Shown here piece by piece: positions 22,051-23,791 of a DNA stretch of 64,000 nt. The notes under the pieces were generated by a model. The model did not search any database and was not told the DNA's origin. It saw nothing but the letters and a program-made list of their open reading frames with translations. A program made the position numbers and the translations under genes. Numbering within the stretch: position 1 is the stretch's first letter; every line of letters begins with the position of its first letter. Origin of the DNA: Desulfopila aestuarii DSM 18488 (GTDB lineage: Bacteria > Desulfobacterota > Desulfobulbia > Desulfobulbales > Desulfocapsaceae); contig CAMBBS010000010.1 in NCBI GenBank assembly GCA_945863875.1, positions 1-64,000 on the forward strand. Reading direction: 5' to 3'.

Positions 22051-22323
22051 ATGGATAATAAAAATATAAAACTTTATGCCGTGAGCACTTGTGGTCACTG
22101 CAAGACCTTAAAGAAAATGCTTGAAACGGAAAGGTTTGTTTTTGATTCTGTTGATGTAGATCTCCTGGTAGGTGCACAGCGCCGGGAGACATTAGCGGAA
22201 GTGAAACAGGTCAACAAACGTTGTTCCTTTCCGACGATGGTTATTGGAGAAAAGGTCATTGTCGGCTTTAGGGAAAATGAAATAAAGGAGGCATTGGGGA
22301 TTCGGTCAACTCCCCCGCCGTGA
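22051..22323 (+). CDS. Glutaredoxin-like thioredoxin-fold protein
   Basis: 90-residue protein with a thioredoxin fold and active site CGHC (residues 11-14, in YAVSTCGHCKTLKKML), and a cis-proline region FPTMVIGEKVIVGF. It is probably a disulfide/thiol carrier reduced by the ferredoxin-thioredoxin reductase encoded just beyond the IscB remnant. ATG 22051 has GGGAGCG upstream. The stop falls only a few bases before the apparent left end of the IscB element, which may have inserted directly behind this gene. Confidence 0.85.
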   Translation: MDNKNIKLYAVSTCGHCKTLKKMLETERFVFDSVDVDLLVGAQRRETLAEVKQVNKRCSFPTMVIGEKVIVGFRENEIKEALGIRSTPPP

Positions 22324-22329
22324 AGGACG

Positions 22330-22560
22330 GAGTGTGTGCAAGCAGTTCCTGTGTTGACCAGGCACAGCCAGGGCCGCAAGGCTAACGGGCTACGTTGAGA
22401 AAGAAGAGAGAGGCACTCTGGAATGCTCCACCAGTTCCAGGCTCCGCGACAAGTGGTTCAACAGGTTGAAGGGGTTAAGCCAGTGGTGCTTGTACAAAAC
22501 CTTTCATTACCATTGCCGAGGTGGTTTTTACTCGCGAAAGTGAAGAATTTTAAAGGTAAC
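22330..22560 (+). ncRNA. Apparent omega RNA (HEARO-type) of the IscB element
   Basis: Non-coding stretch directly upstream of the IscB remnant, where IscB elements carry their guide RNA. Its core (AAGGCTAACGGGCTACGTTG, about 22377-22396) resembles the HEARO/omega RNA consensus as recalled. Hairpins are visible: CTGGAA/TTCCAG (about 22420-22442) and TTCAA/TTGAA (about 22456-22469). The guide would be the 5' end near the glutaredoxin stop. The exact ends are not determined. Confidence 0.6.
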
Positions 22561-22565
22561 CTTCA

Positions 22566-23429
22566 ATGCAGCATGTGTTGGTCATAGACAAAAACAAAAT
22601 GTTCTTGATGCCTTGTCATCCGGCAAGGGCGAGGGAGCTTTTGCGCAAGGGAAAAGCTGCTGTCTATAAAAGATTTCCTTTTCGTATCATTTTAAAAGAA
22701 AAGAGCGGCGGTGATGTTCAAGATCTCGAGGTAAAGCTCGATCCAGGGAGCAAGACGACAACCATTGCCCTGGTGGCGGAGTTTCAGCAGGGCAATGGTT
22801 GTTTGGGCCGGAGAGCTTACTCACCGTGGACAGGCCATAAGAAATACACTTCTCTCCAGGGTGGACAATGTTTTTACCTGGGCAAAGCGTCGCATCAACT
22901 TTGCTCCAGTATCCGGGATGGTGGTGCAAGCAATTTGATTCGCTATGCCACCGGCGGCAGGTTGAAGGCATTCGGCCTGCCGGTTTCCTTCTGGTCCGGA
23001 GGAAGAACCACGTATAACCGGATGAACCAAAGCTACGGAAAATCCCATTGGCTTGACGCCGTTTGTGTCGGTGCAACAGGCGGGAGTGTCCATATTCCGC
23101 CGGGACTACAACCTCTCCATGTTTCTGCTATGGGCAGAGGACCACGGCAGACGTGCCGGGTGGATAAACATGGTTTTCTTCGAACGTCAGCGGCATCAAT
23201 ACGAGTTGTCAATGGATGTAAAACCGGGGATCTGGTCAAGGCACTGGTCAAAAAAGGCAAAAAGCCCGGGACGTATGTTGGCAGGGTGTCTGTCCGAAAG
23301 TCCGGCAGTTTCAATATCAAGACAGAAGCGGGTACAATACAGGGGATTGCATGGAAACATTGCTCTCTTTTGCAGCGTGCCGATGGTTACAACTACTACA
23401 GAGGAGACAGCGTTTCCTCCTCCACCTGA
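22566..23429 (+). pseudogene. Decayed IscB (RuvC/HNH nuclease of IS200/IS605-type elements)
   Basis: The N-terminus (VLVIDKNKMFLMPCHPARAR) is the IscB PLMP domain. LDPGSKTTTIAL is RuvC-I with its catalytic Asp, and KSHWLDAVCVG is RuvC-III. The C-terminus (MGRGPRQTCRVDKHGF, TYVGRVSVRKSGSFN) is also typical. The middle is damaged. After about residue 77 the expected VVWAGELTHRGQAIRN continues in another frame, from about 22797, until a TGA. The arginine-rich bridge helix, most of RuvC-II and the whole HNH domain are missing. The remnant is 287 codons, against roughly 400-500 for intact IscB. IsrB, a natural HNH-less relative, is less likely because the bridge helix is lost and the frame is shifted. 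No transposase is present. Confidence 0.85.
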
Positions 23430-23458
23430 AGGAAGAGGTAGCCACGCTGTAATTTTAG

Positions 23459-23791
23459 ATGAATGCGGAGGAACTCTACCACAAACTGAAGGTCGTCCAG
23501 GAAAGGAGAAATCTCATTTTCAATAAAGACCGGTTGAAAACCCTGGAACTCCTCGATGGACTTCTGGTGAACAAAGAACGGTATGGGTATATGTCCTGCC
23601 CATGCAGGCTTGCTTCGGGTACGGCGGAGTACGACCGGGATATAATCTGTCCGTGTTTGTATTGTCAGTCGGATATCGAAGAATTTGGAAGTTGTTACTG
23701 CAGTCTCTATGTATCCAGAGCATGGAATGAAGGAGTGATACCCCCGGTGTATGTTCCTGAACGCCGCCCGCCGGAGAAAACAGTTTTCTGA
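23459..23791 (+). CDS. Ferredoxin-thioredoxin reductase catalytic subunit
   Basis: 110-residue [4Fe-4S] protein with the FTR catalytic-subunit pattern CPCR...CPC...C.C: SCPCRLASGT, IICPCLYCQSD and FGSCYC. These cysteines hold the cluster and the redox disulfide that passes electrons from ferredoxin to a thioredoxin-like partner. The glutaredoxin-like protein before the IscB remnant is the obvious partner, so the element appears to have split a natural gene pair. No strong ribosome site is seen before the ATG. Confidence 0.88.
   Translation: MNAEELYHKLKVVQERRNLIFNKDRLKTLELLDGLLVNKERYGYMSCPCRLASGTAEYDRDIICPCLYCQSDIEEFGSCYCSLYVSRAWNEGVIPPVYVPERRPPEKTVF

What the first reader, a model, noticed from the sequence alone, without database searches (positions are those of the whole stretch)
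22330..23429. Decayed IscB element with apparent omega RNA splits a redox gene pair
PLMP, RuvC-I, RuvC-III and C-terminal parts of IscB remain, while the bridge helix, RuvC-II and HNH are lost and the frame is shifted. The upstream RNA region looks better kept than the protein. The element lies between a glutaredoxin-like gene and ferredoxin-thioredoxin reductase, which plausibly were adjacent. An RNA that outlives its nuclease could act with another IscB in the genome or take on a regulatory role.
Basis: partly seen in the sequence, partly recalled or inferred. Interest (0 to 1): 0.65.

Follow-up and report, generated by a model that had tools for sequence, protein, structure and literature searches.

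The report
Dead IscB transposon with readable frame
A dead copy of a small RNA-guided jumping gene sits exactly between two redox genes; about 30 sister copies in the same genome show that its ruined protein gene changes freely but almost never gains a stop signal, probably because the host gene directly behind it needs to be read through it.

Summary
Window 22305-23458 is a complete-ended, decayed IscB/HEARO (ISC, OMEGA) element: a full-length HEARO RNA (115.9 bits, E 4e-24), then an IscB remnant lacking the bridge helix, RuvC-II and HNH. A relative has the empty site: the glutaredoxin TGA stop overlaps the FTR-beta ATG start (ATGA), and the element lies exactly before ATGA. It is one of about 30 copies in this genome and absent from 96 relatives except one weak hit. 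One full-length IscB exists. The window copy shares its bridge-helix deletion with 11 other copies, so this is no sequencing error. Its frame is not lost: 287 codons run open from native start to native stop. Across 23 copies substitutions look neutral for amino acids (omega about 1; intact pair 0.10), yet no copy has a substitution-caused stop (0 of 20, 7-10 expected); control frames show no depletion. Most copies lie directly before start codons of genes such as argJ, pncB, pepA, mrp and gcvPB. Best reading: dead non-autonomous copies whose open frame is selected to keep the downstream host gene expressed. The selection is shown statistically; the mechanism is inferred.

The parts
22305..23458 (+). 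whole element, 1154 bp, GTCAAC...TTTTAG, inserted directly before ATGA without target duplication
   Evidence: alignment to intact copy; empty site in relative L041
22305..22531 (+). HEARO / omega-RNA, full model length
   Evidence: 115.9 bits, E 3.9e-24
22285..22304 (+). presumptive guide: last bases of the glutaredoxin gene upstream of the RNA scaffold
   Evidence: position relative to HEARO; inferred from known IscB omega-RNA layout; only own flank matches well in genome
22566..23429 (+). IscB remnant ORF, 287 aa, native start and native stop
22793..22794 (+). site of 2-nt deletion; frame shifted from here to 22925
22846..22847 (+). junction of 108-nt deletion A (bridge helix), shared with 11 other copies
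22925..22926 (+). junction of 334-nt deletion (RuvC-II and HNH); restores the frame together with the 2-nt deletion
23408..23449 (+). right-end hairpin CAGCG...CGCTG with the native IscB TGA in its loop and GGAAGAGG in its 3' arm
   Evidence: closely similar in the aligned right ends
23459..23462 (.). ATGA: target motif and start codon of FTR beta (formerly overlapping the glutaredoxin stop)
22051..22323 (+). glutaredoxin-like gene; insertion replaced its last codon and stop, now ends ...GIRSTPPP* inside the element
23459..23791 (+). ferredoxin-thioredoxin reductase beta
   Evidence: PF02943

Best explanation
A decayed, non-autonomous copy of an IscB/HEARO transposon. It inserted exactly at the overlapping stop/start codon (ATGA) of a glutaredoxin-FTR operon. 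Its nuclease is dead, and RNA and protein letters have drifted at the same rate. What selection still guards is that the frame stays open: ribosomes entering at the IscB start travel through the element to a stop just before the host start codon. That keeps the downstream gene transcribed (no nonsense polarity) and may free the element's Shine-Dalgarno-like GGAAGAGG, buried in the right-end hairpin, for re-initiation on FTR. Shown: anatomy, empty site, copy family, omega near 1, stop depletion, position before start codons. Inferred: polarity or coupling as the reason.
For: HEARO hit, IscB match, empty site, about 30 copies. Neutral amino-acid change: 105 syn/265 non observed, 103/258 expected; omega also about 0.9-1.0 for shared, older changes. 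Stops: 3 observed vs 11.9 expected by consensus frame, the other five frames not significantly depleted. In actual reading frames 1 apparent stop vs 10.5 expected, that one not real (codon reads TTC). Copies with premature stops 2 of 23, both indel-caused, vs 9.6-12.9 expected; 0 of 20 otherwise vs 7-10 (no simulation of 1500 as low). 25 right ends lie before DTGA; about 17 begin a real gene there vs 4% of ATGA sites in the window being gene starts. ORF stops cluster 29 or 6 nt before the host ATG.
Against: L016 has an early stop (39 codons) yet still precedes an intact PilZ gene; L028, L030 and L031 lost the IscB start codon. Distinct deletions are not clearly enriched for multiples of three. 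GGAAGAGG lies 20 nt from the start codon, longer than ideal. L011, L020 and L027 keep open frames without a gene starting at their ATGA. No expression data. The consensus is not a true ancestor and exchange between copies may distort counts.
Confidence: 0.55

Rival explanations
1. Plain neutral decay: the element is junk, and the open frame is chance or inherited from recently intact ancestors.
For: RNA and ORF diverge equally; codon positions 2 and 3 change alike; some copies are reduced to right-end remnants.
Against: Stop depletion survives trinucleotide context, use of the intact copy instead of the consensus, and singletons only. Intact ancestors would give low omega, as the intact pair does (0.10), but the decayed copies do not.
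Confidence: 0.2
2. The omega-RNA outlived its nuclease and works in trans with the intact IscB at C4:61650, guarding its own site by cutting the empty allele.
For: An intact IscB with a closely similar RNA exists. The guide matches the flank and ATGA fits the NTGA motif reported for IsrB (PMC9581776). Over all copies fewer pairs are broken than expected (44 vs 67).
Against: The pair signal sits mostly in the best-kept copies; the window RNA is close to expectation and scores 39 bits below the intact one. No other target in the genome. The RNA stretch is probably also the transposon end, which alone would keep it.
Confidence: 0.15
3. The shortened IscB proteins are functional nuclease-dead RNA-binding regulators, like TldR proteins derived from TnpB.
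For: Many truncated ORFs of 240-400 codons stay open; HNH and bridge-helix losses are in frame and shared.
Against: Omega near 1 in every region (0.8-1.35); a stretch out of frame in the window copy; RuvC-III Asp changed in L022; several copies end in other frames.
Confidence: 0.07

Closest known systems
IscB / HEARO (ISC, OMEGA) elements
   Same: HEARO RNA upstream of IscB, guide from the left flank, insertion before an NTGA motif, no target duplication, multi-copy, mostly without tnpA (PMC9755519 reports only a few near TnpA)
   Different: most copies here lack HNH, bridge helix or both; lineage-specific; nearest substantial IscB match found elsewhere about 64% identical
IsrB
   Same: no HNH domain; NTGA target motif (PMC9581776)
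   Different: HNH lost secondarily by a 174-nt or larger deletion in a multi-copy family; most copies also lack the bridge helix, hence not a working IsrB
TldR (nuclease-dead TnpB regulators; from own knowledge)
   Same: nuclease-dead remnant of an OMEGA effector beside its guide RNA
   Different: no protein-level constraint here
MITE-like HEARO elements in Methanosarcina (seen here)
   Same: omega-RNA copies without a nuclease gene
   Different: those are ORF-free, about 345 bp and 90-98% alike; here the ORF remnant is kept readable

Membership tests
HEARO RNA (RF02033) | covariance-model score above gathering cut-off over full length | tested here: met
   115.9 vs 83 bits, positions 1-211
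IscB element | IscB protein homology downstream of the RNA | tested here: met
   PF14239 7e-21; about 93% DNA identity to the intact copy
IscB element | RuvC catalytic set, bridge helix and HNH | tested here: not met
   bridge helix, RuvC-II and HNH deleted: a remnant, not an active IscB
IscB element | insertion next to a target motif, empty site without duplication | tested here: met
IscB element | RNA-guided DNA cleavage | not testable with these tools
   no experiment possible
IsrB | HNH-less protein that keeps RuvC I-III and the bridge helix | tested here: not met
   RuvC-II and bridge helix deleted in the window copy
IS200/IS605 mobilisation | movement by a Y1 TnpA | tested here: inconclusive
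   25 Y1 matches in the genome but no convincing shared ends
TldR-like regulator | protein under purifying selection with nuclease-dead site | tested here: not met
   omega about 1

The most novel reading that the evidence does not exclude
Dead IscB genes across a genome are selected only for being translatable: they serve as translation bridges between a host operon and the start codon they sit in front of, so a transposon ORF is kept open with no constraint on its protein.
Probability: 0.45. Interest if true: 0.68.

Novelty: new variant of a known kind. Interest (0 to 1): 0.5.

Why it matters
Start codons often contain the NTGA motif that this RNA-guided family inserts beside, so its copies land between a gene and its ribosome-binding site. 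If the dead ORF must then stay readable, this shows how a site preference lets a transposon persist in operons of housekeeping genes. It also warns that an open reading frame in a transposon remnant is not evidence of a working protein: omega and stop counts can disagree.

Tried and rejected
Sequencing error: rejected, because deletion A is shared by 11 other copies and the empty site is clean. Better-preserved RNA: rejected at base level. Regulation of another locus by the guide: no target found. Linked transposase: Y1 remnants near L015 and L031 are decayed copies of an IS200-like family, not part of the element. Control with decayed IS200 tnpA copies was too small to use. Generality test in Methanosarcina and Microseira: most HEARO copies there have no IscB remnant, so the stop test could not be repeated. 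Key older papers (Weinberg 2009, Kapitonov 2016, Altae-Tran 2021) are not held. Two literature searches failed on query format, so absence of earlier reports is not established. Deletion combinations fail the four-gamete test (A against the HNH loss and against the 116-nt deletion), so exchange between copies or recurrent deletion is needed; which was not resolved.

Full report
What is there. Window 22305-23458 is a decayed IscB/HEARO element with both ends. The HEARO model matches 22305-22531 over its full length with 115.9 bits, gathering score 83. The ORF 22566-23429 matches the RRXRR/IscB N-terminal profile. The same genome holds an intact 435-aa IscB with its RNA at C4:61379-62977, which served as reference. 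Against it the window copy lacks 108 nt (bridge helix), 334 nt (RuvC-II plus HNH) and 2 nt. The last two shifts cancel, so translation from the native ATG runs 287 codons to the native TGA, with about 45 codons in the middle out of frame.

Insertion site. In relative G015 the region aligns at 81-89% with the element missing. There glutaredoxin ends and FTR beta begins in one overlapping ATGA (GGA TGA / ATG ACT). The window element lies exactly before that ATGA, with no target duplication. Glutaredoxin has lost its own stop and now ends with STPPP and a stop inside the element; FTR has been parted from the sequence that preceded its start. Contiguous matches across other copies' sites in relatives were found for gcvPA/gcvPB (L164), L016 and a repeat at L027.

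The family. Twenty-three HEARO hits and further fragments give about 30 copies, against one weak hit in 96 relatives: a lineage-specific expansion. Copies differ by about 5-10% from each other in a star-like manner. Deletions recur in mosaic combinations: A (108 nt, bridge helix, 12 copies including the window), B (174 nt, the HNH domain), C (270 nt) and others. HNH is absent from every scorable copy except the intact one and L003.

RNA against protein. Divergence from the consensus is 4.27% for the RNA and 4.22% for the ORF. Pairs are broken less often than random placement gives (44 vs 67), but the excess comes mainly from the better-kept copies; the window copy has 2 against 3.6. Shared substitutions make these counts non-independent.

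Selection on the frame. Unique substitutions in the ORF are 105 synonymous and 265 nonsynonymous, where 103 and 258 are expected from the same spectrum. The intact pair shows pN/pS 0.10 while most decayed pairs listed range about 0.6-1.9 (the simple pairwise estimate over all pairs is 0.68, lower than the spectrum-conditioned value). Nonsense changes are depleted (3 vs 11.9), while the other five frames are not significantly depleted. Counting only codons actually translated, one stop-making change is seen against 10.5 expected, and that codon in fact reads TTC because of neighbouring changes. Shuffling the 353 unique substitutions gives 9.6-12.9 copies with premature stops; the data have 2 of 23, both caused by indels. 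Polarising on the intact copy or using singletons alone gives the same result.

Why the frame might matter. All 25 intact right ends are followed by ATGA, GTGA or TTGA, in line with the NTGA motif measured for IsrB (PMC9581776). About 17 of them start a real gene there, among them argJ, nicotinate phosphoribosyltransferase, leucyl aminopeptidase, mrp, gcvPB and cbiK, while about 4% of ATGA sites in the window are gene starts. Survival bias against insertions inside genes contributes to this. Translation through the remnant ends 29 or 6 nt before the host start in most copies. The right end folds into a hairpin with the native stop in its loop and GGAAGAGG in its 3' arm, so a ribosome reaching the stop could open it. 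That polarity or coupling is the cause is inference.

Comparison. It is a remnant of a known family (IscB/HEARO), not an active IscB, not a working IsrB (bridge helix gone), and not a TldR-like regulator (no protein constraint). New is the combination of neutral letters with a guarded frame, and the widespread placement before host start codons. Whether this has been described is not settled, because the key papers were not held.

Noticed in passing
L192, L195, L198, L201, L204, L207, L210, L213, L216, L219 (Methanosarcina STD2_179 genome): A family of about 345-bp MITE-like HEARO elements, 90-98% alike, with no IscB ORF; 45 HEARO hits in that genome.
   Followed up: partly
genomes of L093 (Scytonema NIES-4073) and L097 (Microseira wollei): About 60 HEARO RNAs each; most Microseira copies examined have no IscB remnant nearby.
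   Followed up: partly
L164 (G000:C5:34425-34996): A 572-bp mini-element sits exactly between gcvPA and gcvPB at their overlapping ATGA, with a frame open from just outside it to 6 nt before gcvPB.
   Followed up: partly
L167, L168, L169: Only 76-142 nt of the element's right end remain directly before an ATGA/GTGA (a gene start in L167); possible captured leader sequences.
   Followed up: no
L032-L039: An IS200-like Y1 transposase family (five copies with open frames of 140-168 codons, several decayed) in the same genome; possible source of trans mobilisation.
   Followed up: partly
deletions A, B, C, D across copies (L003, L004, L009-L031): Recurrent deletion endpoints occur in combinations that no single tree explains: gene conversion or hot-spot deletion.
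   Followed up: partly
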